Positions 6,411 to 63,380 of a stretch of DNA of 64,000 nt are shown piece by piece; position 1 is the first letter of the stretch, and each line of letters starts with the position of its first letter. The position numbers were made by a program, and so were the translations under genes. The notes below the pieces were generated by a model that saw only the letters and a program-made list of their open reading frames with translations, was not told where the DNA came from and ran no database searches. Source of the stretch: Deltaproteobacteria bacterium (GTDB lineage: Bacteria; Desulfobacterota; Desulfobacteria; Desulfobacterales; Desulfosarcinaceae); NCBI GenBank assembly GCA_021824175.1, contig JAKALP010000006.1:186001-250000 (forward strand). The letters run 5' to 3'.

Positions 6411-6450
6411 GTTTGCCCGTTGGCCCGTTGGCCCGTTGGCCCGTTGGGCG
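6411..6450. repeat. five-copy 8-bp tandem repeat (GTTGGCCC)
   Basis: Five head-to-tail 8-base units, GTTTGCCC then three exact GTTGGCCC and a degenerate GTTGGGCG. It sits about 10 bases before the preferred start codon of the RlaP-like gene and occupies the place of its ribosome site. It is one of the word-repeat families of this window. Confidence 0.85.
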
Positions 6451-6537
6451 TCAAGCGCCTTGATCTCGTCGGAGGCTCTGGAAAGGAGAGCGCACACGCA
6501 GCTTGCAGTCAATGAACCGGCCAAGGTTTTTAATTAT

Positions 6538-6573
6538 CTTTGTGCCTTTGCGCCTTTGTCACTTTGTGCCTTT
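6538..6573. repeat. word repeat, CTTTGTGCC family
   Basis: Reads CTTTGTGCC, TTTGCGCC, TTTGTCA, CTTTGTGCC: the same phrase with small changes. It lies between the leuD stop and the RlaP-like gene. The same phrase recurs at 40716-40927 and 43283-43335, within the thiamine operon. Confidence 0.75.
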
Positions 6574-6598
6574 ATGACTCCGCGGCAAGCAGCCAACC

Positions 6599-7228
6599 TT
6601 AATAAGGCGAATAACTCTTCTCAAAACGGGTGATATCCGCCTCATACTGCAAGGTGATGGCAATATCGTCCAATCCTTTGAGCAAACGCTGCTTGGCGCT
6701 GGATTCGATGTCGAAAGTAAAGGTGGTGGGATCGGGGCCGCGCAGGGTGAATTGCTGCTTTTCCAGGTCCACCGTGGCTTGCAAACCCGGATGGGCCGCC
6801 ACCTGGTTGAAAATGATCTGTACTTCATCTTCGGACAGCTCAATGGCCAGCATGCCGTTTTTAGTGGTGTTGTTCAAGAAGATATCGGCAAAGGCCGGCA
6901 AGCGCTTGCCGCCCAGCTCTTTCCAAGGGGCCACCACCACGCGATAGCCGTCCTGCACCAGGGCCCAGACCGCGTGCTCGCGGCTCGAACCACAGCCGAA
7001 ATTGTTGCGGGTCACGAGGATGGAACGGCCGTAGAAGCGGTGTTGATTAAGCTCGAAGGCGGGATTGGGGCTGCCGTCAGCATTATAGCGCCAGTCAAAA
7101 AAGGCGCTGGGCCCGTAGCCCGTGCGTTTGATGGATTTCAGGAACTGCTTGGGAATGATGGCGTCGGTGTCCACATTGGAACGGTCCAGGGTGGCGATGA
7201 TGCCGGTGTGGGTGGTGAAGGGCTGCAT
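6599..7228 (-). CDS. leuD: 3-isopropylmalate dehydratase small subunit
   Basis: Small (swivel-domain) subunit of isopropylmalate isomerase, which with LeuC converts 2- to 3-isopropylmalate in leucine synthesis. The 209 residues match the bacterial LeuD length. Signatures are DTDAIIP (20-26) and the substrate-recognition loop NFGCGSSREHAVWAL (about 76-90). ATG 7228 follows GAGGAAAC. It lies downstream of leuC on the same strand, 233 bases away, with a word repeat filling the gap, so co-transcription is likely but not tight. Confidence 0.96.
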   Translation of the reverse strand: MQPFTTHTGIIATLDRSNVDTDAIIPKQFLKSIKRTGYGPSAFFDWRYNADGSPNPAFELNQHRFYGRSILVTRNNFGCGSSREHAVWALVQDGYRVVVAPWKELGGKRLPAFADIFLNNTTKNGMLAIELSEDEVQIIFNQVAAHPGLQATVDLEKQQFTLRGPDPTTFTFDIESSAKQRLLKGLDDIAITLQYEADITRFEKSYSPY

Positions 7229-7300
7229 ATGTTTCCTCTAAGTTCACGGTTTTCTACTTATACCGCAATTCATTGTGATTCGCCGATGGGGCGGAAGATG

Positions 7301-7436
7301 AGTTTTAAGTCTAAAGTATCAAGTTTAAAGCGGTGGATTTTAGCCATTTGGATTATTTCATTGTCATAACACCACCAAAATTTTCAATCGCCGGAACACC
7401 TCAACTTAAAACTTTACACTTAAAACTTTAAACTTA
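7301..7436. repeat. facing inverted word repeat, AAACTTTAAACTT family (leuC-leuD gap)
   Basis: Left part 7301-7330 reads AGTTTTAAGT...AAGTTTAAAG. Right part 7403-7436 reads AACTTAAAACTTTACACTTA and onward, the inverted form of the same phrase. The spacer is about 70 bases. The same phrase in the same facing layout occurs between ilvB and ilvN (11631-11760), the other branched-chain amino acid locus here. Confidence 0.75.
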
Positions 7437-7461
7437 TTCCGTCCCGTCCCTCTTTCGATGT

Positions 7462-8871
7462 CTATCGATTCATAAAAGTCCGTATGTCAACGAACTTCCC
7501 CGCCACGGCCGCGGCCGCGGCCATTTCCGGGCTCACCAGATGGGTGCGCCCGCCCTTGCCCTGGCGGCCTTCGAAATTGCGGTTGGAGGTGGAGGCGCAG
7601 CGCTGCTGGGGCCTGAGCTGATCCGGGTTCATGCCCAGGCACATGCTGCAACCGGCGAAACGCCATTGGGCGCCGGCCGCCTTGAAAATTTGATCCAGCC
7701 CTTCGGCTTCGGCCTGGCGCCGCACCTGCATGGAGCCGGGCACCACCAGGGCCTGCACCTGGGGCGCCACTTTGCGGCCCTTGAAAACCGCGGCCGCCAG
7801 GCGCAGATCTTCGATGCGCGCATTGGTGCAACTGCCGATGAACACCACATCCACGGGCACATCGGTCAGGCGCGTGCCGGGGGTCAAGCCCATGTAGGCC
7901 AGGGCGTTTTCCACGTCCGTGCGGCTGTAGCCGGCGGCCTGGTCCGGTCCGGGCACGGTCTGGTCGATGTCGATCACCATGCCGGGATTGGTGCCCCAGG
8001 TGACCTGGGGTTTGAGCCGGCGGCAATCGATGGTGATGCTCTGGTCGAATTTGGCCCCGGCATCGCTGGGCAACGCGCGCCACATGGCCAGCGCCTGCTC
8101 CAGTTGTTTCCCCTTGGGCGCAAAGGGGCGGTCGGCGGCGGCAATATAGTTGAAGGTGGTTTCATCGGGTGCGATCAAACCGGCCCGGGCCCCGGCCTCG
8201 ATGCTCATATTACAGATGGTCATGCGCGCTTCCATGGAGAGGCCGCGAATGGTTTCGCCGCAGTACTCCAGCACATGGCCCGCGCCGCCAGCCGTGCCGA
8301 TGGTGCCGATGAGTTTGAGCACCATGTCCTTGGAAAAGATGTGAGGCGGCAGTTGGCCGGTGAACTCCACCTTATAAGTTTTGGGTTTGCGTTGCGCCAG
8401 GGTCTGGGTCACCAGCACATGTTCCACTTCCGAGGTGCCGATGCCAAAGGCCAGGGCCCCGAAAGCGCCGTGGGTGGAGGTGTGGGAGTCGCCGCACACG
8501 ATGGTCAGGCCGGGCAGGGTCAACCCCAGCTCGGGGCCGATCATGTGCACGATGCCCTGGCGGTCGTCACCCAGGTCATACATCTGAATGCCAAAATCCT
8601 TGCAGTTGCCGCGCATGGCCTCCACCTGGGCCTTGGAAATGGGGTCCTTGATCTCCATGCGGTCGTCGGTGGTGGGCACGTTGTGATCCATGGTGCCGAC
8701 CGAGAGATCGGGCCGGCGCACCTTGCGGCCCGCCAGGCGCAAGCCTTCAAAGGCCTGGGGGCTGGTCACTTCATGGACCAGGTGGCGGTCGATGTAAATC
8801 AAGGCCGAGCCATCAGGCAGCTCCCGCACCACATGTTTTTGCCAAATCTTTTCAAAGAGTGTCTTTGCCAT
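7462..8871 (-). CDS. leuC: 3-isopropylmalate dehydratase large subunit
   Basis: Aconitase-family catalytic subunit of isopropylmalate isomerase, 469 residues beginning [13 protein letters not shown] 8871 follows AGGAAGATC; the open frame runs back to 9132 only because a CGTACTC repeat there encodes (Val-Arg)n without stops. The three 4Fe-4S ligands are visible: Cys348 ([11 protein letters not shown]) and Cys408/Cys411 (GCSMCLGMN), very close to the E. coli positions. [20 protein letters not shown] and DHNVPT are also present. It is paired with leuD downstream and is divergent from the vapBC-type pair and ilvB. Confidence 0.97.
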
Positions 8872-8985
8872 CTGATCTTCCTGTTTGAGGTGATTTGATG
8901 ATCTTGCTTCGCAATGCTCCATAAAATGCATATATGCGACTGGAATGTCAATTCTCTCAGCTGCTGCACATCGGCGTTTTCCAGA

Positions 8986-9059
8986 TCGTACTCGTACTCG
9001 TACGCGTACTCGTACTCGAAATGGTTGCAAAAGCCCTTCGAGTACGCGTACGAGTACGA
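8986..9059. repeat. CGTACTC word repeat forming a large hairpin upstream of leuC
   Basis: The left arm (8986-9019) repeats TCGTACTCGTAC with a central GTACGCGTAC. The right arm (9038-9059) is the reverse complement over about 21 bases. The loop of 18 bases reads AATGGTTGCAAAAGCCCT. The structure lies in the leuC leader, about 115-185 bases before its start. Another copy without an inverted partner is at 21674-21697. Confidence 0.85.
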
Positions 9060-9153
9060 AAATATCCGCCTCGTTTCCGTGCCGCAAGCAATGGCCGTAC
9101 CTGCATTCATTGGGTTCTGGGGACCAGCCCAATTGACATCACCCCCCCGCTTG

Positions 9154-9192
9154 CCTTACCATGATATCAGTAAGGACAATTATAAAGTAAGG
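9154..9192 (+). promoter_or_regulatory. candidate operator of the 9.2-kb AbrB/PIN pair
   Basis: Perfect inverted half-sites CCTTAC (9154-9159) and GTAAGG (9170-9175) flank a 10-base spacer containing ATGATATC. A further GTAAGG at 9187-9192 overlaps the Shine-Dalgarno AAGGAGG of the antitoxin. AbrB-type antitoxins usually autoregulate at inverted repeats, so this is a natural binding site. The role is inferred. Confidence 0.45.
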
Positions 9193-9199
9193 AGGCGCC

Positions 9200-9445
9200 A
9201 TGATATCCGCCACCATCACCACCAAGGGCCAGGTCACCATTCCCAAAGCAGTACGCGATTCGCTCACGCTGCAACCAGGGGACAAGATCGAATTCATCCT
9301 TACCGACCAGCACGAAGCCCTCATCCGGCCGATCTCTAAAAAGGTCGATGATCTTTTCGGCATCCTGCAACAGCCAGGTCGTAAACCCGTTGCAGTGGCG
9401 GAGATGGATGCCGCCGTGCGCCGGAAAATGAAGGAGCGCTTGTAA
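9200..9445 (+). CDS. AbrB/MazE-type antitoxin (VapB-like)
   Basis: 81 residues. The N-terminal swapped-hairpin domain reads ATITTKGQVTIPKAVRDSLT..PGDKIEF, classic for AbrB/SpoVT DNA-binding antitoxins; the C-terminal half would bind the toxin. ATG 9200 follows AAGGAGGCGCC. Its stop overlaps the toxin start by one base (TAATG), so the two are translationally coupled. Expected role: neutralise the PIN RNase and repress the operon. Confidence 0.9.
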   Translation: MISATITTKGQVTIPKAVRDSLTLQPGDKIEFILTDQHEALIRPISKKVDDLFGILQQPGRKPVAVAEMDAAVRRKMKERL

Positions 9446-9867
9446 TGAAGGCTTTGGATACCAACGTGATTGTCCGGTTTCTGGTCAAAGACGACCCAAC
9501 CCAATCGGAGATCGTTTATCGCGCCTTCAAACAGGCCGAAGCTCAAAACAGCCTCTACTGGATTCCGCTATTGGTTGTTCTGGAGACATTATGGGTGCTC
9601 GAATCGGTGTATGAAATCCGCCGCGATAAAATTTTAGATGCTTTGAATGGGATGATACTTCTGCCGGTGTTGCGTTTCGAGGCCCAAGCAACCATTGAGA
9701 ATTTTCTGGCACGCGCCCGTGAAAGCAAAATCGACCTTGGCGATCTGCTGATTGCATCGGCCGCGCAACAATCCGGGTGTGAACAGGTGCTCACATTTGA
9801 CAAAAAGGCTTGCAGGTACGACCTTTTCAAACCCATTGAATCGTTTCTGACATCAAGTTCCAAATAA
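9445..9867 (+). CDS. PIN-domain toxin (VapC-like RNase)
   Basis: 140-residue PIN endoribonuclease. Acidic active-site residues are visible in order: ALDTNVIVRFL (Asp5), LVVLETLWVLE (Glu), DLGDLLIAS and the TFDKKA aspartate. Length is normal and the start is coupled to the antitoxin. It ends just before ilvB, which starts 10 bases after the toxin stop. Toxin activity on RNA is inferred from family. A PIN toxin of a different subfamily is at 38588-38992. Confidence 0.9.
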   Translation: MKALDTNVIVRFLVKDDPTQSEIVYRAFKQAEAQNSLYWIPLLVVLETLWVLESVYEIRRDKILDALNGMILLPVLRFEAQATIENFLARARESKIDLGDLLIASAAQQSGCEQVLTFDKKACRYDLFKPIESFLTSSSK

Positions 9868-9876
9868 GGATATCGA

Positions 9877-11637
9877 ATGAGGGATGCACCCATGATGACC
9901 GGCAAAGAATTGGTGATTAAGGCCCTGAAGGACAAGGGCGTGCAATATGTGTTCGGCTATACCGGCGGCGCCATCATGCCCATTTTCGATGAGATGGAGC
10001 GCCAGCAATGCTTTCAATTCATCATGTCCCGCCATGAACAGGGCGCGGCCTTCATGGCCCAGGGATTGTCGCGAGCCTCACAGACCACAGCGACCCCACA
10101 GGTGGGGGTCTGCATGGCCACTTCCGGTCCCGGCGCCATGAATCTGGTGACCGGCGTAGCCGATGCCATGATGGATTCGGTGCCAATGCTGGCGGTCACG
10201 GGCCAGGTCAGCACCGGCGTGATCGCCACCGACGCCTTTCAGGAAAGCGATGTGGTGGGCGTGATGATGCCCATTGTCAAGCAAACCTACATGCCGTTGT
10301 CCGCGGACAAAGTGGAGGAGACCATTCACGAAGCGCTTTATGTGGCCGCCACCGGCCGGGGCGGTCCGGTGGTCGTAGACATTCCCAAGGATATCCAGAC
10401 TCAGACCACACCAGAGGATTACTCCTTCGATCCGGCCGCCTATGAACCGGATCTGCCCGGTTTTTACTACTCGCCCGCGCCGGATCGCGATCTTTTCCGG
10501 CGCGCCATCGGCCTGATCAACAAGAGCGAGCGGCCCATCATCCTGTGCGGCCACGGCGTGGTCAGCCGCAATGCCGGGGCTGATCTGCGGCGCCTGGTGG
10601 AAAAAGCCCGCATCCCCATTGCCTTTACCCTGCATGGCCTTTCGGCCTTGCCCGTGGATCACCCCATGAGCCTGGGCATGGTGGGCATGCACGGCACCGT
10701 GGAAGCCAACCGCGCCCTGCTCCACGCGGATTTGATCCTGGCCCTGGGCATGCGCTTTGACGACCGGGTGACCGGCCGGCTGGACACCTTTGCCCGCAAC
10801 GCCACCGTGATCCATGTGGAGATCGACCCTTCGGAGATCGAAAAAAATGTGGCGACGCATGTGGCGCTCAATGCCGATGTGGGAGAAGTATTGAGGCTGC
10901 TGGCCAAAGATCCGGAGATCACGCCCAAGCCGCGCCGGGCTTGGTTTGAAAGCATTGAGAGTTACCGGCGGGAGATTGCCCAGGAAGTGGAAGAAGAGAT
11001 CGCCAAAGGGGTGGGCAAAGAGGGCAGCCTGCTGATGAAGACCATTGTGCGCTCCTTGTCGGAGGTCACCGGCGGCAAGGATCTGATTGTCTCCGATGTG
11101 GGCCAGCACCAGATGATGCTGGCCCGGTTCTACAATTTCCAAACGCCCAACAGCTGGTTTGCTTCGGGCGGCGCCGGCACCATGGGCTGCGCCCTGCCCA
11201 TGGCCGTGGGCGTGAAACTGGCCCGGCCCGATGAGCGGGTGTGGGCCGTGATGGGCGATGGCGGGTTTCAGATGAATCTGCAGGAGTTGGGCGCGGTGAT
11301 GGAGTATCAAAGCGACATTAAAATACTCCTGCTCAACAACGGCTACCTGGGCATGGTGCGGCAGTGGCAGACGCTATTTTATGATGGCCGTTATGCGGGC
11401 ACGCCGTTGAAGAATCCGGATTTCGGCCTCATTGCCCAGGCCTACGGCATCCCCTACCAGCGAGTGACGCAGAAGGAGAAGATCGCCGCGGCGCTCCAGC
11501 AGGCCGCCGACCACCGCGGCCCCATCATGGTGGAGTTCGCCTGCGATCCCAGCGAAATCGTGCTGCCCATGGTGCCTTCGGGCGGAGGGATTGGGGATAT
11601 GATTGTATCGAAGAAGCAGATAGGAAAAAGAGTGTAA
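9877..11637 (+). CDS. ilvB: acetolactate synthase large (catalytic) subunit
   Basis: ThDP-dependent enzyme that condenses pyruvate units, the first common step of valine, leucine and isoleucine synthesis. 586 residues with GYTGGAIMPIFDEM and the catalytic glutamate in RHEQGAAFMAQG at the N-terminus. The FAD-type middle domain has ALGMRFDDRVTGRLDTF, and the ThDP motif is GDGGFQMNLQELGAV...LLNNGYLGMVRQWQ. ATG 9877 follows AAGGA; in-frame ATGs at residues 6-7 are alternatives. It is separated from ilvN by 150 bases of word repeat. The ilvC gene that often follows is absent. Confidence 0.96.
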   Translation: MRDAPMMTGKELVIKALKDKGVQYVFGYTGGAIMPIFDEMERQQCFQFIMSRHEQGAAFMAQGLSRASQTTATPQVGVCMATSGPGAMNLVTGVADAMMDSVPMLAVTGQVSTGVIATDAFQESDVVGVMMPIVKQTYMPLSADKVEETIHEALYVAATGRGGPVVVDIPKDIQTQTTPEDYSFDPAAYEPDLPGFYYSPAPDRDLFRRAIGLINKSERPIILCGHGVVSRNAGADLRRLVEKARIPIAFTLHGLSALPVDHPMSLGMVGMHGTVEANRALLHADLILALGMRFDDRVTGRLDTFARNATVIHVEIDPSEIEKNVATHVALNADVGEVLRLLAKDPEITPKPRRAWFESIESYRREIAQEVEEEIAKGVGKEGSLLMKTIVRSLSEVTGGKDLIVSDVGQHQMMLARFYNFQTPNSWFASGGAGTMGCALPMAVGVKLARPDERVWAVMGDGGFQMNLQELGAVMEYQSDIKILLLNNGYLGMVRQWQTLFYDGRYAGTPLKNPDFGLIAQAYGIPYQRVTQKEKIAAALQQAADHRGPIMVEFACDPSEIVLPMVPSGGGIGDMIVSKKQIGKRV

Positions 11638-11760
11638 AGTTTAAAGTAGCCAAGTTTAAAGCAAAGGATAAGATTCATTTGCTTGTTCGATATCGATACC
11701 ATGCTCTAATTTATGCAGAGATACGATCTCTTTACACTTTACTACTTTAAACTTAAAACT
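11631..11760. repeat. facing inverted word repeat, AAACTTTAAACTT family (ilvB-ilvN gap)
   Basis: Left arm 11631-11662 (AGTGTAAAGTTTAAAGTAGC...) starts inside the last codons of ilvB and contains its stop. Right arm 11728-11760 (CTCTTTACACTTTACTACTT...) is its near reverse complement. The spacer of about 65 bases is unrelated sequence. In RNA this would form a long AU-rich hairpin between the two subunits of acetolactate synthase. Confidence 0.8.
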
Positions 11761-11787
11761 ATTAGGAACCAAAAATAGGAGCATTCC

Positions 11788-12317: not shown

Positions 12318-12345
12318 CATTAATGCATGATTTCTGAGCACCTAT

Positions 12346-12807: not shown

Positions 12808-12916
12808 GGTAAGCTCCTTTTCCCCGTTGATCGCGCTTTGATCGCGCGCTGGCTGCCTTTTGGTTAACGTACTTATTTCACCATGGATGATAACAAATTG
12901 GCAATACCATTCTAAA

Positions 12917-13061
12917 TAGTGCATGACCGAAAATCCCCTATTTTCCCAATTTCTGCGTTGGGGCAAAATTTTAATCCTCGAAATACTCTGTGTATTCCTG
13001 CGGTTAAAATTTCGCCTCCGCCTTGAACTTGGAAAAATATGGGCTTATCGATCATGCACTA
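12917..13061. repeat. 145-bp imperfect palindrome (MITE- or REP-like element)
   Basis: The whole segment is a near-palindrome centred on 12989. Termini TAGTGCATGA (12917-12926) and TCATGCACTA (13052-13061) are exact inverts. Inner arms GGGGCAAAATTTTAA and TTAAAATTTCGCC match, and the core is AATAC-TCTGTGT-like-GTATT. It has no coding capacity. Size and layout fit a non-autonomous mobile element or a dispersed palindromic repeat. It lies 110 bases before the TPR gene. Confidence 0.75.
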
Positions 13062-13143
13062 AATAAAAAAGGGCGCATATAAATGCACCCAGTGGCAAAG
13101 GAGAACAACGGACCCTGAATCCTAATCCTGAGTAACTATTCGG

Positions 13144-14024: not shown

Positions 14025-14038
14025 CTGTTTGGGTCTTT

Positions 14039-14078
14039 GTTGATTCGTGGATTCGTTGATTGGTTGATTCGTTGATTG
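14039..14078. repeat. word repeat, GTTGATTC family, upstream of trmL
   Basis: Reads GTTGATTCGTGGATTCGTTG and onward through GATTGGTTGATTCGTTGATTG. In the trmL direction it reads CAATCAACGAATCAACC. It ends about 15 bases from the preferred trmL start and encodes an in-frame Asn/Gln/Ser/Thr-rich extension. Same family as 47223-47356, 54376-54538 and 63329-63380. Confidence 0.85.
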
Positions 14079-14089
14079 CGGGTATTCCT

Positions 14090-21673: not shown

Positions 21674-21697
21674 TCGTACTCGTACTCGTACGCGTAC
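21674..21697. repeat. word repeat, CGTACTC family
   Basis: TCGTACTCGTACTCGTACGC followed by GTAC, the same phrase as the left arm of the hairpin upstream of leuC. No facing copy nearby. Just downstream of fapA. Confidence 0.75.
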
Positions 21698-21906: not shown

Positions 21907-21931
21907 AAGAAACACCCCGAGTCCTGAAATA

Positions 21932-22014
21932 GATATCGAATATCGAACAAGGAACAGTAAAATATCGAAGGAAAACTTTATGATTCGATATTTGTTGTTC
22001 GATATTCGATATTC
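21932..22014. repeat. facing inverted word repeat, GATATTCGATA family
   Basis: Left arm (21932-21971) GATATCGAATATCGAACAAG ... AAAATATCGAAGG. Right arm (21984-22014) TTCGATATTTGTTGTTCGAT ... ATTCGATATTCA, its inverse. A short spacer separates them. The right arm creates a false frame reading FDIRYS. Confidence 0.8.
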
Positions 22015-22107
22015 ATTATTTTGGATGGAGTGTGGTGTTTGTGGCAGCTCAATGGGCTACATGCGATGCCCTGCCCTCTGGCGCCCCCCATTTGACCATT
22101 GCCCCCA

Positions 22108-22933: not shown

Positions 22934-23776
22934 ATGCGGATTGATTTTCATACTCATATCTTCCCTAAAGCCATCCGGGAGCAGCGCGAGCGTTATCTGC
23001 CCGGTGAGCCGGCCTTTGAGCTGCTCTATGCTTCGGTCAATTCAAGGATGGTGGGCGCGAATGAATTAGTGGCGGCCATGGACCAGCACGGGGTGGACAA
23101 GGCGGTCACCTTCGGCTTTCCCTGGCAATCCATGCAGACCGCCCGGCGCCACAATGACTATATCCTGGAGTCGGTGCAGCGCCACCCCCAACGTCTCATT
23201 GGTTTTTGCTGCGTGGATGCCGGCCAGCCCCAGGCCCCGGCCGAAGTGGAGCGCTGCCTGAAAGCAGGACTGGCCGGCGTGGGCGAACTGGCCTTTTACT
23301 GCGATGACTTCGCCTGCCGCCTGGACACCATGGATGAAATCATGGCGTTGGCCCGCAACTTCGATTGCCCGGTAATGCTCCACACCAACGAGCCGGTGGG
23401 CCATCAGTACCCCGGTAAGACCAACAACACCCTGGCTCAGATCTACGCGCTGGTGAAACGCTTCCCCGGCAACCGCATCGTGCTGGCCCACTGGGGCGGC
23501 GGCCTCTTCTGGTACACCCTCATGAAGAAAGAGGTGACCGAAGTATTGGCCAACGTGTGGGTGGATACCGCCGCTTCGCCCTTTCTCTACAAGCCCGCCA
23601 TTTACTCCATGGCCATGAGCCTGGCTGGAGAAGACAAAGTGCTTTTCGGCACCGATTACCCGTTGCTGGCCGCCCCGCGCTACCTCAAAGAGATGGCCCA
23701 GGCTGGGCTGAGCGACTCCCAAATACAGAAGATCTGCTCCAGCAACGCAGTCAATCTCCTAAAACTCAAATTGTAA
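22934..23776 (+). CDS. amidohydrolase family protein (Amidohydro_2)
   Basis: 280 residues. Metal-site motifs: N-terminal HxH in RIDFHTHIFPK, GVGELAFYCDDF, PVMLHTNEPVGH, IVLAHWGGG and FGTDYPLLA. ATG 22934 follows CTAAGGAGATAGC. It probably forms an operon with the upstream pterin methyltransferase-like gene. Substrate unknown. Its stop codon lies inside the palindromic terminator it shares with the convergent gene. Confidence 0.87.
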   Translation: MRIDFHTHIFPKAIREQRERYLPGEPAFELLYASVNSRMVGANELVAAMDQHGVDKAVTFGFPWQSMQTARRHNDYILESVQRHPQRLIGFCCVDAGQPQAPAEVERCLKAGLAGVGELAFYCDDFACRLDTMDEIMALARNFDCPVMLHTNEPVGHQYPGKTNNTLAQIYALVKRFPGNRIVLAHWGGGLFWYTLMKKEVTEVLANVWVDTAASPFLYKPAIYSMAMSLAGEDKVLFGTDYPLLAAPRYLKEMAQAGLSDSQIQKICSSNAVNLLKLKL

Positions 23777-23819
23777 TTTTTTTGAGGGGCGGGCGTACGC
23801 CCGCCCCTCAAAAAAATTA
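23774..23819. terminator. 46-bp perfect palindrome, bidirectional terminator
   Basis: Perfect palindrome centred at 23796/23797: T(A)ATT..TTTGAGGGGCGGGCGT and its exact inverse. A 13-bp GC-rich stem is flanked by T6-7 in both directions. It contains the TAA of the plus-strand amidohydrolase (23774-23776) and the TAA of the minus-strand gene (23817-23819), so both convergent genes end in its outermost bases. Confidence 0.95.
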
Positions 23820-33303: not shown

Positions 33304-33626
33304 TCGCCGATTGCCCGCCGACAAAATTCTTCTGCTTTTTATCTCTTCCACCAAGCCATGCGGACCCAAAGAGATTTGATTAAACGCCCATCGGGAAATG
33401 GCCAATTTGCCTGCTTCCGGGGCGAACACCAACTGTTATTTCTTTTGGCCGGTGTCGAAAATGTCGGTGGTCGAGAAGCCGAAAAAAAGTCGGTATAAAG
33501 CATTGCATGTATTTGCGATCTACAAAGAGTGTTATTTTGAAAGTAGGGAATGAAATTCTTCTCCTGGCCTAAGTCGATTTAAAACTTAAAACGATAAGGT
33601 TGCGAGACTGCTCCGATGAGGTGAAA
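33304..33626. other. leader and upstream region of the GEMM riboswitch
   Basis: About 320 bases with no coding frame. The AT-rich stretch 33575-33600 (GATTTAAAACTTAAAACGAT) just before the aptamer is the likely promoter-proximal leader, but no clean -35/-10 pair was found. Confidence 0.35.
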
Positions 33627-33712
33627 AAAGCAAACCATTCCGAAAGGGTGGGACGCAAAGCCGCTGGCCTAAATCATTTCCGGATAGGAAATGACAAGGT
33701 AGCAGGGCTGCC
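33627..33712 (+). ncRNA. GEMM-I riboswitch (c-di-GMP or cGAMP class)
   Basis: All conserved GEMM-I blocks appear in order: GCAAACC (33631-33637), a CCGAAAGG GNRA tetraloop hairpin, GGGACGCAAA (33651-33660), GGCCTAAA, a variable P3 hairpin (CATTTCC GGATA GGAAATG) and GGTAGC..GGGCTGCC (33699-33712). The base before GCAAACC is A, in a run of A, where the Vibrio Vc2 aptamer has G, so 3',3'-cGAMP selectivity as in Geobacter should be considered. Downstream CTACCTT (33734-33740) can pair with AAGGTAG (33696-33702) of the aptamer, a possible switch between two folds. It precedes a small helix-turn-helix frame. Confidence 0.87.
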
Positions 33713-33724
33713 GCCAAATCACAC

Positions 33725-40715: not shown

Positions 40716-40927
40716 CAAAGGGGCAAAGGCACAGAGGCACAAAGGCACAGAGGGACGGAGGGATTTCTTCTCCTCGTTCCCACGCTCTGGAGAACCTCTG
40801 TGTGCCTCCGCGCTCTCTGCGACCTCTGCGTTGAGTCATTAGCATACCCCATTGCTGTTCAGGTCAACCTGGGGGCGAAGAACCCTTTGCCCCTCTGTGC
40901 CTTTGCCCCTTTGTGCCTCAGTCCCTT
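40716..40927. repeat. composite facing word repeat, GGCACAGAGG/CTTTGTGCC family (thiE-thiC gap)
   Basis: Left block 40716-40763 (GGGGCAAAGGCACAGAGGCA...). Middle block 40795-40835 (CCTCTGTGTGCCTCCGCG..). Right block 40883-40927 (CCCTTTGCCCCTCTGTGCCT...), the inverse of the left. A CCTCGTTCCCACGCTCTGG phrase sits at 40771-40789. The right block runs into the last codons of thiE. In the thi transcript the outer blocks would pair. Confidence 0.8.
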
Positions 40928-43282: not shown

Positions 43283-43335
43283 CTTTGTGCCTTTGTGCCT
43301 CAGTCCCTTTGTCCCTCAGTCCCTCAGTCCCTAAT
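43283..43335. repeat. word repeat, CTTTGTGCCT / CAGTCCCT family (thiG-thiH gap)
   Basis: CTTTGTGCCTTTGTGCCTCA then repeated GTCCCTTTGTCCCTCAGTCC units, running into the last codon of thiG. Same phrase as the thiE-thiC composite and 6538-6573. Confidence 0.8.
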
Positions 43336-44381: not shown

Positions 44382-44406
44382 CCAAAAATTTCAATTTGTC
44401 TTTTTG

Positions 44407-44489
44407 AGCCGCTTCCCTTCGCCGGTATTACCCGGATCAGGTTCTAAGGGTTGGATGAGCTCCTCTCAGCGTGGATCGCACCCCTAGCG
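44407..44489 (-). ncRNA. TPP riboswitch (THI element)
   Basis: On the minus strand: GGGGTGC, CTGAGAGGAG, ACCCTTAGAACCTGATCCGG, GTAATACCGGCG and AAGGGAAGCGGCTC, the complete THI-box. P1 is formed by CGCT and AGCG at the two ends. It sits about 100 bases before thiS and is joined to a terminator, so TPP should stop transcription of thiSGHFEC. Confidence 0.97.
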
Positions 44490-44539
44490 TTTATGAATTC
44501 TACCTATAGATAAGCACCTCGCGCTTGTCAATCGTTGCC

Positions 44540-47222: not shown

Positions 47223-47356
47223 TTGGTTGATAGGTTGATGGTTGATTCGTGAAGTGCTTGAGTAGTTGTAGGTAGAATTTGATCTTCGCAGATCATTGGA
47301 GTGGGGTAAAATATGCGCACCCGAATAAGCGAATCAACCAATAACGAATCAACGAC
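47223..47356. repeat. facing inverted word repeat, GTTGATTC family (moxR-DUF58)
   Basis: Left copy 47223-47254 (TTGGTTGATAGGTTGATGGT...). Right copy 47323-47356 (GAATAAGCGAATCAACCAAT...), the inverse. The right copy lies inside the first codons of the DUF58 gene and encodes ESTNNESTT. Confidence 0.8.
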
Positions 47357-48242
47357 GATCCCTCCTGACCTCATCCAAAAAATCAAAAAGATCCACATCC
47401 GCACCGGCCGGACCGTGAATACGCTCATGGCCGGGCAGTATAAATCGGTCTTTCGCGGCGCGGGCATAGAATTTGAAGAGGTGCGCGATTACTCCCCCGG
47501 TGATGATGTCAAGTCCATTGACTGGAAAGTCTCGGCCCGGCTGGGCCGGCCTTTTATCAAGCGTTTCCGCGAAGAACGCGAGTTGATCGTCATGCTGCTG
47601 GTGGACCTCAGTGCTTCGGGCCGCTTTGGCACCCGCCAGAGCACCAAACAGGAGATCGCCGCTGAAACCGCGGCCATCCTGGCCTTCAATGCCATCCGCA
47701 ACAACGACAAGGTCGGCGCCATTCTCTTCACCGACCAGGTGGAGCATTATATCCCGCCCAAGAAAGGCAGCGGTCATGTGTGGCGCGTGATCAAGGAGAT
47801 CTTCGCCCATACGCCCCAGCACACGGGCACGGACATCTCAGGGGCCGTGGGTTTTCTGGGGCGGGTGTGCCGCAAACGCTCGGTGGCCTTCGTGATCTCT
47901 GATTTTATTCTACCCGCCGGGCCGGTGGTGGACCGCCAGATGCGCGCCGTGAGCGGCAAGCACGAGTTGATCCAGGTGCGCGTCAGCGATCCGGGAGAAT
48001 TCGAGCTGCCCGAGGCCGGCATCATTCTGGTCCAGGATCTGGAGAGCGGGCGGTTGATGCACCTGGATGCTTCCCATGCGCGCACGCGGCTCCGCTATGT
48101 CGAACAGATGACGGCCGCCTATCAATCCGTCAGCGAGCAGTTCAAATCCGCGGGCCTGGATTGCATCGACATTCGCACCACGCAATCCGCGGCCGATACC
48201 TTGACGCGTTATTTTCGGATGCGGGAGAAAAGAAAACGGTGA
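47313..48242 (+). CDS. DUF58 (VWA-like) protein
   Basis: 309 residues. Core DUF58 text FRGAGIEFEEVRDYSPGDDV KSIDWKVSARLG, then RPFIKRFREERELIVMLLVD and a VWA-like fold with DLSASGRFG. The N-terminal 15 residues come from a GTTGATTC-type repeat, so the native start may lie a little downstream (first natural-looking residues PPDLIQKIKK); no better start codon is available. DUF58 proteins always accompany MoxR and probably bind its client. Confidence 0.88.
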   Translation: MRTRISESTNNESTTIPPDLIQKIKKIHIRTGRTVNTLMAGQYKSVFRGAGIEFEEVRDYSPGDDVKSIDWKVSARLGRPFIKRFREERELIVMLLVDLSASGRFGTRQSTKQEIAAETAAILAFNAIRNNDKVGAILFTDQVEHYIPPKKGSGHVWRVIKEIFAHTPQHTGTDISGAVGFLGRVCRKRSVAFVISDFILPAGPVVDRQMRAVSGKHELIQVRVSDPGEFELPEAGIILVQDLESGRLMHLDASHARTRLRYVEQMTAAYQSVSEQFKSAGLDCIDIRTTQSAADTLTRYFRMREKRKR

Positions 48243-54375: not shown

Positions 54376-54538
54376 TTGGTTGATTGGTTGATTCGTTGAT
54401 TGGTTGAGCCATGAAGTGATTCTGTGGTGATACAAATCGAGCCAAAAGATTATTCATCTGATAGCCGAGGAATATTAAATTTTGGCATCTTCCCTCCCTC
54501 CACCCAATTGACCAATCAACGAATAAACCAATCAACGC
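54376..54538. repeat. facing inverted word repeat, GTTGATTC family (bat-toxin gap)
   Basis: Left copy 54376-54408 (TTGGTTGATTGGTTGATTCG...) begins four bases after the batE-like stop. Right copy 54503-54538 (CCCAATTGACCAATCAACGA...) is its inverse. The spacer is about 95 bases. The pair could end the Bat transcript as an AU-rich hairpin and precedes the toxin-antitoxin promoter. Confidence 0.85.
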
Positions 54539-54614: not shown

Positions 54615-55016
54615 ATGGCAAATCCCTTGAGACTCAATCCGGAACTGATATCCGCGGCCGAGCGCGCGGGCATGGTGCAGAAACGTTCGGTGCCCAAGCA
54701 GATTGAATTTTGGGCCTCTTTGGGCAAGGCGGTGGAAAATGTGCTGGACTATTCCGACATTTTCGCCATCATGCAGGGCTTGAAAAAGATCAATGTCGAG
54801 CCTGTGACCTCTTCCGCTGCCGCGCCCCAGCAGGTATTCGCCGCTCTGGAGCAGAGCCGCTCCCAAGGAACCTTGGGCGAAAAAACCACCAAAGCCATTA
54901 TCTACTATGAGGCCAGCCGCACCCATCCCGGCCTCATCGACCAGGTCAACAGCGCCACCAGCAAACGCGTGACCGGCCGTTTCAGCAACGGCGAATTCAA
55001 GGCCACGCAAGGATGA
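54615..55016 (+). CDS. ParD-like antitoxin
   Basis: 133 residues. N-terminal SLGKAVENVLDYSDIFAIMQ and RSVPKQIEFWASLGKA text matches the ParD-like antitoxin family (PF11903 type, ribbon-helix-helix-like). The C-terminal third (SATSKRVTGRFSNGEFKA) is extended and may fold on the toxin. ATG 54615 follows ACGGAGGTGTATC. ATGA overlap with the zeta gene defines the pair. Confidence 0.75.
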   Translation: MANPLRLNPELISAAERAGMVQKRSVPKQIEFWASLGKAVENVLDYSDIFAIMQGLKKINVEPVTSSAAAPQQVFAALEQSRSQGTLGEKTTKAIIYYEASRTHPGLIDQVNSATSKRVTGRFSNGEFKATQG

Positions 55017-56836: not shown

Positions 56837-56910
56837 TCGCTGATGTGGGCGCACAACCCGCCTGCATTCTGCTTTCTTATCCCATCATCTTCCAAGAGAA
56901 GAAAAAGAAA

Positions 56911-59418: not shown

Positions 59419-59493
59419 GGCGCTCCATTTGCGCGCGGCGCGAAGAAGAGAAAGCACTTCTTCGCGCCCTTGATCAAACCATCAGGTGAACTC

Positions 59494-60435
59494 TTATTTG
59501 CTCTGGCCGTCCAAATACTTCTCCAAACTCTTCTGGTCAGAGACATTGTGCACGGCGACTTCGGCGCCGGCGGGCAGAATCTTTTTCAGCAGGCCGGTAA
59601 GCACCTTGCCGGGACCGATCTCCACGTATTCCTGCACCCCTTCCTTGACCATCTTGAGCATCGAATCGTACCAGCGTACCGGGCTGCACAACTGCCGGGC
59701 CATGAGGGCTTTGATCTGCTCGGGATCGGACAGGGTGTCGGCCGTGACATTGTGGATGACCGGGCATTGGGGCGTCTTGAATGGGATTTGATTGAGGAAA
59801 GCGCGAAACTCTTCTTCGGCGCCCTGGATCAAGGGGCTGTGCCAGGCGCCACTGACTTTCAGGGCGATGGCGCGGCCGCCCTGGGCCGTGGCGGCATGGC
59901 CCGCCGCTTCCACGGCCGCGGGAGCGCCGGTGATCACGATCTGGTCGGCGCTGTTGTGGTTGGCTACAGCCACCACGCCTTGGCCCGAGACCTCCTTAAC
60001 GACGAGGTTGACCTCCTCGATGGCCAACCCCACAATGGCGCTCATGGCGCCCTGGTGCCGGGTGGCTTCACGGTGCATCAACTCGCCGCGTTTGTGGACC
60101 AGCCTCATGCAATCGGCGGCCGTCACCACGCCGGCGGCATACAAGGCGCTGTATTCGCCCAGGCTGTGGCCGGCACACACCGTCGGGCGGATGCCCCGGC
60201 TCTGGATGATGGACAGACACGCCAGATTGACGGCCGTGATGGCCGGCTGCAGGTTGACGGTCTGGGTCAACTCTTCCATGGGGCCTTCAAAGCAAAGCTT
60301 GGAAATGGGCAGGCCCGTGGCCGTGTCCGCGGCCTTGAAAATCTCTTTGACACCGTCAAAGGACTGGAACAGATCTTGTCCCATGCCCACTTTTTGCGAT
60401 CCTTGTCCTGGAAATAAAAATGCGATCTTTTTCAA
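59494..60435 (-). CDS. fabD: malonyl-CoA:ACP transacylase
   Basis: 313 residues. Loads malonyl onto acyl carrier protein for fatty acid synthesis. Motifs: FLFPGQGSQKVGMG, nucleophile Ser91 in GHSLGEYSAL, catalytic His in SGAWHSPLIQG, and QLCSPVRW. The start codon is TTG 60435, after a strong GGAGGGAGAAG site. Other fab genes are absent; it is 77 bases downstream of hemA. Confidence 0.95.
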   Translation of the reverse strand: MKKIAFLFPGQGSQKVGMGQDLFQSFDGVKEIFKAADTATGLPISKLCFEGPMEELTQTVNLQPAITAVNLACLSIIQSRGIRPTVCAGHSLGEYSALYAAGVVTAADCMRLVHKRGELMHREATRHQGAMSAIVGLAIEEVNLVVKEVSGQGVVAVANHNSADQIVITGAPAAVEAAGHAATAQGGRAIALKVSGAWHSPLIQGAEEEFRAFLNQIPFKTPQCPVIHNVTADTLSDPEQIKALMARQLCSPVRWYDSMLKMVKEGVQEYVEIGPGKVLTGLLKKILPAGAEVAVHNVSDQKSLEKYLDGQSK

Positions 60436-60512
60436 CTTCTCCCTCCTCTTTTGCTTGGCCGAAGGCTTTGCCTGGCCGTAAGATCCTTACTCTCCTGCCG
60501 GGAAGTAAATTG

Positions 60513-61781
60513 TTATTCGTCGAGCCCAAATATCTTTCGCACCAGATCCAATGGCACCGCCCGATCCCCCTGGCAGCTGCTGTTTTTGATATATTGGGTC
60601 GGGTGGTGCAAGATCTTATTCACCATGGCTTCGGTCATGCGTTCAATGGCCTTCTGGTCATCCGCGGTCAAATGGGCCAGCTGCCCCAAAGTCTTCTGCA
60701 CCTCCAGCTGGGCCTGGGACCTGATTTTGGCATGCAGGGCCTTGATGGTGGGCACCACGTCCAGGGCCTCAAACCATTGGCGGAATTTGATCACCGCCTC
60801 GTCGATGATCCGTTCGGCTTTCACGGCCTCACGGCGCCGGTCTTCGATATTTTCGTCCACCACCTCGTTGAGATCGTCGATGTCGTAGACATAGGCATTG
60901 TTGATATCATTGATCTTGGGATCAATATCCCTGGGCACGGCAATGTCGATGAAGAACAGGGGCCGGTTGCGGCGGTGGCGCATTACTCCTTTGACGTCGA
61001 CGGGTTGCACCACATAGCCGGGCGCGCCGGTGGAGGAGATGATGATATCCACCCGGTCGAGATGGGCGGCGATCTCTTCCATGCGGATGGCCGTGCCGTT
61101 AAACCGGGCGGCCAGGGCCACGCCGCGTTCAAAGGTGCGGTTGGCCACAAACACCTGGCCGGCGCGGTTGCGGATCAAATGCTCCACGGCCAGTTCGGCC
61201 ATCTCGCCCGCGCCAATGAGCAGTACTTCCTTGCCCTCCAGGGTGCCGAAGATCTTGCGGGCCAGCTCGATGGCGGCATAACTGATGCTCACGGCGCTGT
61301 CGCCGATGCCGGTTTCGGTACGAATGCGCTTGGCCACGCTGAACGTATTGTGCAGCAGGCGGTTGAGGATCACGCCCGAGCTCTTCTGCTCGGTGGCCAG
61401 GCGGTAGGCGGTCTTGACCTGACCCAGGATTTGGGGTTCGCCCAGCACCATGGAGTCCAGACTGGCGGCCACCCGGAAGAGATGGCGCACGGCCGCATCC
61501 CCATGGTGTTGATAAAGCGCAGCTTCAAAATCCGCCAGGGGGATCTGTTTGCTCTGGGAAAAAAAGCCCTTGGCCGCCACTACGGCCTGTTGAATATCTT
61601 TGACGCACAGTAGTAATTCCACCCGGTTGCAGGTGGAGGTGAGCAGGGCCTCTTCGATGGCGGGCTGGCCGCACAACCGCGTCAGGGCCTGCCGGCAATC
61701 CTCTTCGGTAAAGGCAAAGCACTCCCGGATCTCCACTGGAGCGGTCTTGTGGTTGAGCCCTATGAGAAGAATGCGATCCAT
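60513..61781 (-). CDS. hemA: glutamyl-tRNA reductase
   Basis: First committed enzyme of the C5 route to 5-aminolevulinate, NADPH-dependent. 422 residues: catalytic Cys51 in STCNRVELLLC, VLGEPQILGQVK, VLLIGAGEMAELAVEHL (NADPH site), ISSTGAPGYVV, FIDIAVPRDIDP and the C-terminal dimerisation helices. ATG 61781 follows GGAGAGGC, 12 bases after ccsA. The order precorrin-2 dehydrogenase, ccsA/hemX, hemA is typical of this lineage. Confidence 0.96.
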   Translation of the reverse strand: MDRILLIGLNHKTAPVEIRECFAFTEEDCRQALTRLCGQPAIEEALLTSTCNRVELLLCVKDIQQAVVAAKGFFSQSKQIPLADFEAALYQHHGDAAVRHLFRVAASLDSMVLGEPQILGQVKTAYRLATEQKSSGVILNRLLHNTFSVAKRIRTETGIGDSAVSISYAAIELARKIFGTLEGKEVLLIGAGEMAELAVEHLIRNRAGQVFVANRTFERGVALAARFNGTAIRMEEIAAHLDRVDIIISSTGAPGYVVQPVDVKGVMRHRRNRPLFFIDIAVPRDIDPKINDINNAYVYDIDDLNEVVDENIEDRRREAVKAERIIDEAVIKFRQWFEALDVVPTIKALHAKIRSQAQLEVQKTLGQLAHLTADDQKAIERMTEAMVNKILHHPTQYIKNSSCQGDRAVPLDLVRKIFGLDE

Positions 61782-61793
61782 GCCTCTCCGAGA

Positions 61794-62615
61794 TCAGAAA
61801 CGCGTAAAGGGCGCATGATGCCCCTTGAGCAGCAAATTGACGCCCAGGAATGTAAACAGCATCACGCCAAAGCCCAAAATGGCCATGATCGCGGCCCTGC
61901 GGCCGCGCCAGCCCACGGCCAGGCGTTCATGCAGCAAGACCGCGTAGAAAATCCAGGTCACGGCGGACCACACCTCCTTGACATCCCACTGCCAAAAATG
62001 GCCCCAAATGATCTTGGCGTAAATCATGCCGCTGATCAGGCCCATGGTGAGCAAGGCAAAACCGCTCACGATGCAGGCATAGCCCGTGGTGTCGAGCAGA
62101 TCCAGCGAAGGCAATCGTTTGAAGAAAAAGCCCCGGCTTTTGGATTTGATGCTGCGCTCCTGGATAAGATAGAGCAGGCCGCAGCCGGCGGCCAGGGCCA
62201 GCATGGCATCCCCGGTAAATATGGTGAAGATATGAATCACCAGCCAGGCGCCCTTGAGCAGGTTATCCGGCTGCAAAGGCTCGGACGGCAGCTGGCCGGC
62301 GGCCAGAACGATGAAAAGGGCCAGCGGGGAAGCATAGATCCCCAATATCTTGAGACGGAACTTGAAATTAAGCGCCAGAAAGGCGCCCACCAGGGCCCAG
62401 GCCGTCATGGAAAGGGTTTCATGCAGATTGTTCACCGGCATGTGGCCGGTGGTCGCAAAGGCCACGAGAATATCAATGGTCTGAACGCTGAACCCGGCCA
62501 CAAGCAGAATGCAGCCGATCTTTTGCAGCAGGTCGCGCTGCAGAAAGAGGTAAGCAAAATAGGTGACCGTGCTGATCATGTAAAACAAAACGGCGGCGGC
62601 GAACACAATCTGCAT
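61794..62615 (-). CDS. CcsA/HemX-like cytochrome c assembly membrane protein
   Basis: 273 residues with about eight TM helices. The haem-handling WWD-like loop reads WGHFWQWDVKEVWSAVTWIF; histidines in ATTGHMPVNNLHETLSM and LVIHIFTIF are placed as expected. CcsA delivers haem for cytochrome c maturation; HemX-type relatives tune HemA. Lying directly before hemA, either role fits. ATG 62615 follows AAAGGGATC. Confidence 0.9.
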   Translation of the reverse strand: MQIVFAAAVLFYMISTVTYFAYLFLQRDLLQKIGCILLVAGFSVQTIDILVAFATTGHMPVNNLHETLSMTAWALVGAFLALNFKFRLKILGIYASPLALFIVLAAGQLPSEPLQPDNLLKGAWLVIHIFTIFTGDAMLALAAGCGLLYLIQERSIKSKSRGFFFKRLPSLDLLDTTGYACIVSGFALLTMGLISGMIYAKIIWGHFWQWDVKEVWSAVTWIFYAVLLHERLAVGWRGRRAAIMAILGFGVMLFTFLGVNLLLKGHHAPFTRF

Positions 62616-62630
62616 GGTAGCTGATCCCTT

Positions 62631-63320
62631 TCAGCTTGGCTTGGCGATGGGGGCCCGCGAGGCCTCGTCCATCAAGGATTGATAGGTGAAACCGGGTCCG
62701 AGCACCTGGGACAAAAGCGCATCGATGCGGCCGCTGTCATTGGCGCGGATCATCTCCAGCAGTCCTTTGGCGATCAGCTGCTCAAACAGCGGTTTGTGTG
62801 CTTCCGGCGCATGCGCCTGCTGCAACAATCTGTCCCGCGCGGCTCCCATCAAGTCCAGAAAGCGGCCATACTCCGGCCCGAACTGGTTTTGGAGCTGCTG
62901 GCGCAAATGCTTGGCAAAGGCTGGACTCTTGCCGGCCGTGGAAATAGCGATCATCAAATCACCTTGCTGGATGACGGCTGGCAGGATGAAATTGCAATGC
63001 TCGGGCTGGTCGGCGATGTTGCACAGGCGGCCGGTTTGCTCGGCATCGGCATGGATGCGGCTGTTCAGGGCCTGATCATCGGTGGCTCCGATGACCAGGA
63101 AGGTGCCCTGCTGGTCCGTGGCGCGGTAAGCCCGGCGCTTCAACTGGATTTGACCCTGCGCGGCCAGGGCGGACAACGCCTGGGTGACTTCGGGACTGAT
63201 CACGGTCACCCTGGCGCCGCACTCCAGCAGTGTCAGGACCTTGCGGGTGCCCACCTGGCCGCCGCCCACCACCAGGCAAGGGCGATTTTTGATATCCAGG
63301 CATATGGGATAGTAGCGCAT
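62631..63320 (-). CDS. precorrin-2 dehydrogenase / sirohydrochlorin ferrochelatase (CysG N-terminal-like)
   Basis: 229 residues from MRYYPICLDIKNR. NAD-binding CLVVGGGQVGTRKVLTLLEC, FLVIGATDDQALNSRIHADA, LCNIADQPEHCNFILPAV and LMIAISTAGKSPAFAKHLRQ are diagnostic. Oxidises precorrin-2 to sirohydrochlorin for sirohaem or alternative haem synthesis. ATG 63320 is chosen because the frame to 63377 is a GTTGATTC-type repeat that merely encodes INESTNQRIN. Followed by ccsA 15 bases on. Confidence 0.93.
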   Translation of the reverse strand: MRYYPICLDIKNRPCLVVGGGQVGTRKVLTLLECGARVTVISPEVTQALSALAAQGQIQLKRRAYRATDQQGTFLVIGATDDQALNSRIHADAEQTGRLCNIADQPEHCNFILPAVIQQGDLMIAISTAGKSPAFAKHLRQQLQNQFGPEYGRFLDLMGAARDRLLQQAHAPEAHKPLFEQLIAKGLLEMIRANDSGRIDALLSQVLGPGFTYQSLMDEASRAPIAKPS

Positions 63321-63328
63321 GTTGTACT

Positions 63329-63380
63329 CGTTGATTCGTTGATTGGTTGATTCGTTGATTGGTCGTCTGCCAATCAACCC
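63329..63380. repeat. word repeat, GTTGATTC family, at the precorrin-2 dehydrogenase start
   Basis: Main copy 63329-63362 (CGTTGATTCGTTGATTGGTT...) ends eight bases from the preferred start. A short facing copy CCAATCAACCC lies at 63370-63380. In the gene direction the layout is GGGTTGATTGG, 7-base spacer, then CCAATCAACGAATCAACC repeats, then ATG. Confidence 0.85.

What the first reader, a model, noticed from the sequence alone, without database searches (positions are those of the whole stretch)
6411..63380. A dispersed system of unrelated 'word repeats' with a common facing architecture
Six different short words (GTTGATTC/GATTGGTT; CGTACTC; AAACTTTAAACTT; CTTTGTGCC/GGCACAGAGG; GATATTCGATA; GTTGGCCC) occur at about fourteen intergenic sites. 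Each site repeats one word with small variation, and most have the same word inverted on the other side of a 7-130 base spacer (7301-7436, 8986-9059, 11631-11760, 21932-22014, 40716-40927, 47223-47356, 54376-54538, 63329-63380). Different words share one architecture, which points to a common generating mechanism rather than one mobile family. They are not CRISPR (no spacers) and not ordinary REP elements. Similar phrases are familiar to me as spurious protein text in environmental genomes, but I know of no accepted name or function.
Basis: partly seen in the sequence, partly recalled or inferred. Interest (0 to 1): 0.75.

Follow-up and report, generated by a model that had tools for sequence, protein, structure and literature searches.

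The report
Miniature insertions ending in word arrays
Gaps between genes in this bacterium hold many small inserted DNA pieces whose two ends are the same short word repeated and pointing inward; pieces with at least one of the same words occur in many distant bacterial phyla, and what moves them is unknown.

Summary
In 1.264 Mb of this genome (about 21%) a scan found 192 arrays of 5-10-nt words, 177 outside genes, against 2 in shuffled sequence. For seven word families, neighbouring arms within 400 bp face inward 108 times, outward never, and 15 run in the same direction. Orthologous gaps show whole word-spacer-word segments to be insertions: at 8 of 8 readable gaps (of 13 tried) at least one congener has a shorter gap without the array. 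Families are patchy: one word has 324 hits here and none in ten congeners, yet recurs in many phyla, inward 21, outward 2. F1, F5, F9 and part of F4 are copies with conserved ends and decayed centres; F2 and F3 have good arms but mostly unrelated spacers. Best reading: families of small non-autonomous insertion elements with word-array ends. The enzyme is unknown: Y1 genes are not flanked by arrays, RVT_1 does not track the words, no target duplication was found. Closest in print: a convergent heptamer family in Xanthomonas.

The parts
6398..6447 (+). F3 array (word GTTGGCCC), one arm only
6538..6579 (-). F4 array (CTTTGTGCC on +; word AGGCACAA on -), one arm only
7301..7435 (.). F5 facing element (AAGTTTA heptamer), 135 bp; congener gap 6 bp (G010) and 23 bp (G006) against 233 here
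8986..9059 (.). F1 facing element (TCGTAC/GCGTAC hexamer), arms 33 and 21 nt, 20-nt loop; G010 gap 178 bp against 328 here
11631..11764 (.). F5 facing element after a gene with thiamine-pyrophosphate enzyme domains; congener gap 7 bp (G010) and 9 bp (G006) against 150 here
14036..14078 (+). F2 array (GTTGATTS octamer), one arm
21674..21697 (+). F1 array, one arm
21928..22021 (.). F8 facing element (ATATCGA heptamer)
40716..40927 (.). F4 facing element; by eye the spacer holds CTCTG-type nonamers, perhaps an older nested element
43283..43332 (-). F4 array at a stop codon, one arm
47226..47353 (.). F2 facing element between a MoxR-type AAA gene and the next gene; the right arm lies in the first codons of ORF 47313-48242; short or different-word gaps in congeners
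54376..54537 (.). F2 facing element, 3 bp after a called stop codon
63328..63378 (.). F2 array with a short inverted arm after a 6-nt spacer

Best explanation
The sites are several coexisting families of small (about 50-570 bp) non-autonomous insertion elements. Each is bounded by two arrays of one 6-9-nt degenerate word placed as an inverted pair, with the word pointing inward. Shown here: whole word-spacer-word segments are insertions relative to congeners, often into very short gaps (36 of 74 elements end within 15 bp of a called gene); orientation is invariant in the part of this genome that was read; some families are copies by descent whose ends stay alike while centres decay; families differ sharply between congeners, and one word recurs across phyla. 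Inferred: the arrays are the ends that an unidentified trans-acting enzyme recognises, tandem words giving several binding sites per end, as subterminal repeats do in some eukaryotic transposons (recalled, not tested). Also inferred: selection keeps mainly insertions between genes, and gaps already hit tolerate further hits, giving nested and successive words.
For: Orientation 108 inward, 0 outward within 400 bp over seven words; 68 of the 68 elements that could be assigned to a family have the same word sense on the left, 6 unassigned. Insertions: 13 sites were tried, congener gaps could be read at 8, and at all 8 at least one congener has a shorter gap without the array, e.g. 19 bp in two species against 424 here, 7 against 150, 24 against 201. 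Base-level empty sites for one F2 element (G001, G008) and one F3 element (G008, G010). The same gap holds other words in other species at three gaps. An F4 element interrupts a small repeat whose uninterrupted relative is elsewhere in the genome (72% identity over 102 joined-flank bases). Copies by descent: F5 elements cluster at 117-136 bp (13 of 17) and F9 at 63-73 bp (16 of 16); F5 identity is 0.84-0.89 at the ends and 0.34-0.39 in the centre; four F4 elements share spacers. Ends are phase-locked for F1 (outer 40 of 56, inner 51 of 56), F5 (outer 21 of 34), F7 (outer 11 of 18) and F9 (inner 29 of 32). Patchiness: F4 324 hits here, 0 in ten congeners; F5 0 to 353 across the genus. Gap types match the background: 53 of 74 co-directional against 452 of 655.
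Against: No target-site duplication (F3 and F4 not tested). No autonomous version: only 3 facing pairs 400-5000 bp apart in 1.264 Mb, none with an evident transposase between, by eye. No F2, F3 or F7 pair passed the whole-element copy test, although F2 and F3 arms are good; F2-F4 end phases are loose. 62 of 177 arrays have no inverted partner at score 14, and in the NPL-UPA2 bin 83 of 90 have none. Two F4 arrays in other phyla have the partner on the outward side. 15 same-direction neighbours exist here, many perhaps split arrays. G009 has F2-type words in one of the gaps where this genome has F2, so not every gap differs by word. Congener identities next to the gaps are about 66-86%, so breakpoints are uncertain.
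Confidence: 0.55

Rival explanations
1. REPIN-like elements moved by Y1 (HUH) transposases, i.e. a RAYT-REPIN system with unusually periodic stems.
For: Paired inverted arms with variable loops and no target duplication. Y1_Tnp has no hit in G006, G008 and G010, which also have no hit of the F2, F4 and F5 patterns. 20 of 23 F4-bearing genomes (24 of the 80 loci given) have Y1_Tnp.
Against: Y1 genes are not flanked by arrays: 2 arrays within 500 bp of 21 Y1 ORFs, 0.10/kb, against 0.15/kb further away; of the 7 Y1 loci of this genome 2 have an array within 2 kb. Y1 presence hardly discriminates: 50 of 60 genomes, own included, have it. G004 has 6 Y1 hits and few or no hits of these words. G006, without a Y1 hit, has a facing heptamer segment in one gap by eye.
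Confidence: 0.13
2. RNA or DNA hairpins selected in place as terminators or mRNA regulators; the facing arms matter because they pair.
For: Arms can pair; F9 arms agree with their own partner more than with others (1 of 5000 permutations, 16 elements). 32 of 74 elements end within 15 bp of a called stop codon and 8 within 15 bp of a start.
Against: In the other six families own-partner identity is not clearly better than cross-partner: 432, 742, 1796, 1928, 1648 and 4890 of 5000 permutations reach it for F1, F2, F3, F4, F5, F7. An earlier score-based test with fewer elements gave F2 55, F3 21, F4 203, F1 2000, F5 1871 and F9 1066 of 2000, so the two tests agree only in part. No bias to convergent gaps: 8 of 74 against 86 of 655.
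Confidence: 0.1
3. In-place tandem expansion by polymerase slippage, made symmetrical by template switching at imperfect palindromes.
For: Unit number varies among F4 copies with homologous spacers; heptamers are told to be over-represented among long bacterial simple repeats (introduction passages of PMC4692102; introduction of PMC4679880).
Against: Does not explain the inward rule, the inserted spacers or one word across phyla. Two shared G002/G007 elements are stable. Arms of one element are mostly not copies of each other.
Confidence: 0.1
4. Words are written onto broken DNA ends by a word-templating polymerase (telomerase-like); facing arrays are two capped ends later joined.
For: Inward orientation, mostly unrelated spacers in F2/F3, little arm covariation. 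The word strand is G-rich in F2, F4, F5, F7 (none of 57 elements negative) and in facing elements of other genomes (F4-like 23 positive, 2 negative of 27; other words 19 positive, 6 negative of 25). One-sided runs of several C-poor words in the NPL-UPA2 bin.
Against: Skew is negative in F1 (28 of 28), F9 (12 of 16) and F3 (6 of 8), and the rule fails in the NPL-UPA2 bin. F1, F5, F9 and part of F4 are copies by descent. RVT_1 has no hit in G003 and G009, which are rich in F5, nor in G001 and G005, and has hits in G006, G008, G010 without the words; it also has hits in word-rich G000, G002, G007.
Confidence: 0.05

Closest known systems
Convergent GGGAATC heptamer repeats of Xanthomonas (Rehm et al. 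2015, PMC4692102; section 10 read in full, other parts as passages)
   Same: Degenerate 7-nt words, mostly intergenic, dispersed; 70 and 75 cases of two arrays in convergent orientation; close to the 5' neighbouring gene; gaps differ between relatives.
   Different: One word family was studied there, read as quadruplex-forming and generally not found with mobile elements. Here many words of 6-9 nt coexist, most without a run of three G, with empty gaps in congeners and one word shared across phyla.
REPINs / REP elements with RAYT (PMC3116915, start of abstract seen in a search listing)
   Same: Short inverted pairs in intergenic space with variable loop (definition recalled).
   Different: Arms here are tandem word arrays; Y1 genes are not flanked by them.
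MITEs (definition recalled)
   Same: Small, non-autonomous, terminal inverted repeats; copies by descent for F1, F5, F9 and part of F4.
   Different: Ends are iterated words; no target duplication seen; F2/F3 spacers mostly unrelated; no parent transposon found.
TAACTGA direct repeats of Beggiatoaceae, Cyanobacteria, Bacteroidetes (MacGregor 2015, PMC4679880; abstract and introduction read)
   Same: Intergenic heptamer arrays spread patchily across phyla.
   Different: [quoted passage not shown] no facing architecture described in what I read.

Membership tests
MITE | short non-autonomous element with terminal inverted repeats | tested here: met
   109 facing pairs with spacing under 600 bp; lengths 51-574 bp
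MITE | target-site duplication | tested here: not met
   no excess of matching flanks at k=4-5 in F1, F2, F5, F7, F9, apart from one F9 match; F3, F4 not tested; boundaries uncertain by 1-2 bases
MITE | copies share internal sequence | tested here: inconclusive
   met for F1, F5, F9 and four F4 elements; no whole-element pair for F2, F3, F7
MITE | related autonomous transposon with the same ends | tested here: not met
   3 far facing pairs in 1.264 Mb, no evident transposase between, by eye; 79% of the genome unread
REPIN/RAYT | two inverted repeat copies with variable spacer | tested here: met
   108 inward, 0 outward
REPIN/RAYT | cognate RAYT gene flanked by the repeats | tested here: not met
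   0.10/kb near against 0.15/kb away, 20 regions, 21 Y1 ORFs; 21 of 31 genus hits looked at, one (G005 C541) with arrays on both sides
Simple sequence repeat / VNTR | copy number differs between close relatives | tested here: not met
   2 of 2 strong shared F5 elements in G002/G007 unchanged or nearly so; only two examined
CRISPR | direct repeats with regular unique spacers | tested here: not met
   units are contiguous
G-quadruplex convergent heptamers (Rehm 2015) | run of three or more G in each of four or more units | tested here: not met
   unit matrices of F1, F2, F5, F7, F9 hold no GGG on either strand; F3 has it on the opposite strand and F4 in part

The most novel reading that the evidence does not exclude
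A word-writing activity, not a transposase, makes the octamer class: a polymerase with a short internal or RNA template adds a genome-specific vocabulary of words to broken DNA ends, and facing arrays are the scars of two such ends joined around filler DNA. If it is a reverse transcriptase, it is not one that Pfam RVT_1 detects, since G003 and G009 have many words and no RVT_1 hit.
Probability: 0.05. Interest if true: 0.95.

Novelty: new variant of a known kind. Interest (0 to 1): 0.57.

Why it matters
If these word arrays are the ends of an insertion-element class found in many phyla, they are a hidden mobile fraction of bacterial genomes: in this genome 322 arms of seven families in 21% of the sequence. 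It also poses a sharp question: which enzyme reads tandem words in one orientation in such distant bacteria.

Tried and rejected
Rfam on the window gave only TPP and c-di-GMP-I riboswitches away from the sites. A seeded word matrix with a low threshold drifted and was replaced. RAYT hypothesis: looked promising from counts, failed on flanks. Reverse transcriptase: does not track the words. Arm covariation: two tests that agree only in part. Target duplications: none found. Empty paralogous sites by joined flanks: 1 spanning hit for 109 elements. G-rich word strand as a universal rule: fails for F1, F3, F9 and the NPL-UPA2 bin. Purine skew: no rule. A paper search for five of the words gave 279 papers, of which the 20 listed are unrelated by title. 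That I found no paper describing the multi-word, cross-phylum class rests in an open-access library, where for most of them only the top of the list was seen; subscription papers are missing.
Full report
WHAT IS THERE. The 64-kb window holds 13 sites with arrays of short degenerate words, eight of them facing. The window is part of a 6.07-Mb, 61-contig genome, 99.5% complete; I did not establish its name. The word GTTGATTS in tandem has 443 hits there with up to one mismatch, its reversed control 1. I read 1.264 Mb of this genome for the census (window plus 60 stretches) and called genes with a simple codon-based caller of my own, so gene edges are approximate.

CENSUS. A lag-match scan for periods of 5-10 found 192 arrays, 177 of them mostly outside genes, against 2 in all in a first-order shuffle; called genes cover 82%. 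At score 14, 115 of the 177 have an inverted partner within 700 bp, against 0 for shuffled neighbourhoods and 18 with a direct copy. Words seen: F1 TCGTAC/GCGTAC (6 nt), F2 GTTGATTS (8), F3 GTTGGCCC (8), F4 AGGSACWR (8), F5 AAGTTTA (7), F6 ATCGGN (6), F7 AGAAGTC (7), F8 ATATCGA (7), F9 ATCCGTGTA (9), and rarer ones. With matrices for seven of them, 322 arms remain after overlaps are resolved by score.

THE ORIENTATION RULE. Among consecutive same-family arms less than 400 bp apart, 108 pairs point inward (F1 28, F2 22, F3 7, F4 9, F5 17, F7 9, F9 16), none outward, and 15 run in the same direction. In the separate set of 74 facing elements, 68 could be assigned to a family and all 68 have the same sense of the word on the left; six were unassigned. 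Element positions follow the background of gap types: ++28, --25, -+13, +-8 against 210, 242, 117, 86 for all gaps of 60 bp or more. That argues against a terminator or promoter role that would choose gap types. 36 of the 74 end within 15 bp of a called gene, 32 of a stop and 8 of a start.

THEY ARE INSERTIONS. I compared orthologous gaps in the ten other genomes of the genus. Thirteen sites were submitted; five gave no congener gap, seven gave usable gaps, and the eighth (47226) was mis-anchored there and is read. At all eight, at least one congener has a shorter gap without the array found here: 6 bp against 233 (window 7301), 7 against 150 (window 11631), 178 against 328 (window 8986), 23 against 149 by aligned coordinates (window 47226), and in the C14 stretch 11 against 118, 22 against 104, 24 against 201, 19 against 424. 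An F3 site adds gaps of 9 and 10 bp in two species against 226 here (coordinates, sequence). Base-level alignments show an F2 segment absent between stop codon and the region before the next start in G001 and G008, and the F3 segment absent in G008 and G010. At three gaps congeners hold other words, by eye: F3-type words in G009 and a remnant in G001 at the MoxR gap; a TTGGGTTTR nonamer in G001 and heptamers in G002, G005, G006 or G007 at two C14 gaps. Against a strict species rule, G009 has F2-type words in one gap where this genome has F2, and a 457-bp gap in G009 shows none in the 260 bases printed.

FAMILIES AND COPIES. F5 elements are mostly 117-136 bp (13 of 17) and F9 63-73 bp (16 of 16), while F2 spans 55-441 and F3 63-574. 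In an alignment of 13 F5 elements, pairwise identity is 0.84-0.89 at both ends and 0.34-0.39 in the middle; F1 and F9 also dip in the middle, to 0.43 and 0.64. Four F4 elements share spacers at about 75-85%. 19 of 39 spacers of 40 bp or more have some other match in the 1.264 Mb, part of it through nested arrays or other repeats. One F4 element sits inside a small repeat whose uninterrupted relative lies elsewhere in the genome. For F2, F3 and F7 no pair of elements aligned over 80% of the length, although 10 of 91 F2 and 2 of 15 F3 spacer pairs exceed the best shuffled score. So F1, F5, F9 and part of F4 are copies by descent, and the rest of the octamer class is not explained as simply.

STABILITY. 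In the close pair G002/G007 (93.5% identity over 47 kb), two strong F5 elements are shared with 0 and 2 gap positions in about 730. That speaks against rapid change of unit number, from only two examples.

SPREAD. F5 pattern hits are 81 here, 113, 353, 122 and 280 in G002, G003, G007 and G009, 3 in G005 and 0 in the other five congeners. F4 pattern hits are 324 here, 0 in all ten congeners, and 1 to 17 in 6 of the other 49 relatives. Of 85 F4 arrays in those loci, 21 have an inverted partner on the inward side, 2 on the outward side, the rest none; shuffles 0. Two loci were counted from both arms, so 19 separate inward elements. Most titles are metagenome bins, so single assignments may be wrong. 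Two bins titled Desulfobacteraceae and Firmicutes share a spacer by eye. A 431-kb sample of an NPL-UPA2 bin has 90 intergenic arrays, shuffles 0, but only 7 with partners, and runs of different words side by side. Facing is therefore not universal.

WHAT MOVES THEM. Y1_Tnp: 7 hits here, 0 in G006, G008 (64% complete) and G010; 50 of 60 genomes, own included; 20 of 23 F4-bearing genomes of other groups. All 13 genomes with ten or more hits of the F2, F4 or F5 patterns have a Y1 hit, which a rate of 50 in 60 would often give by chance. Arrays do not cluster at Y1 genes; in G005 one Y1 gene does have arrays on both sides within 300 bp. RVT_1 has no hit in G001, G003, G005, G009 and hits in G000, G002, G004, G006, G007, G008, G010, so it does not track the words. 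No target duplication was seen, which fits non-duplicating enzymes but proves nothing.

ARMS. Within an element the two arms are not clearly more alike than arms of different elements, except F9. An earlier score-based version with fewer elements gave 55 and 21 of 2000 for F2 and F3 and nothing for F9, so the tests agree only in part. Pairing of the two arms is probably not what keeps most words alike; recognition of each array is more likely (inference).

VERDICT. Several families of miniature insertion elements with word-array ends: shown as to insertion, orientation and, for some families, copying; inferred as to enzyme and recognition. The nearest published case is the convergent GGGAATC family in Xanthomonas (PMC4692102), read there as quadruplex-forming and generally not found with mobile elements. 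I found no paper on the multi-word set, the empty sites or the cross-phylum orientation.

Noticed in passing
window 12910-13068: About 155-bp palindromic repeat with some 20 further copies at 86-94% in this genome and copies in G001, G006, G008, G010: an ordinary MITE-like family, useful as contrast.
   Followed up: partly
window 44397-44495 and 33619-33715: TPP riboswitch (minus strand) and c-di-GMP-I riboswitch (plus strand), both above Rfam gathering score.
   Followed up: no
window 9200-9867: Two small adjacent ORFs that look by eye like an AbrB-type antitoxin and a PIN-type toxin (not searched); a ParD-like protein is at 54615-55016 (Pfam PF11903).
   Followed up: no
window 23774-23819: Perfect 23-bp palindrome without loop between two called genes, terminator-like by eye.
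   Followed up: no
G000 C10, in loci L031-L046: A repeat of about 28-29 nt whose 12-mers occur 45 times; CRISPR-like by eye, spacers not checked.
   Followed up: no
L340 4850-5340 and 13750-13890 (NPL-UPA2 bin): Runs of several different C-poor words side by side, including GTTTAGG, without a facing counterpart.
   Followed up: partly
L314 (G005 C541) 1-1165: A Y1_Tnp ORF with a nonamer array 144 bp upstream and F2-like arrays from 295 bp downstream, the only such case among the 21 Y1 loci looked at.
   Followed up: partly
window 47313-47360: The right F2 arm lies in the first codons of ORF 47313-48242 and is absent from the congener sequences: an insertion that may have changed a protein start.
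   Followed up: no
L189 5097-5340: An F4 array with its inverted partner on the outward side, one of two such cases among 85.
   Followed up: no
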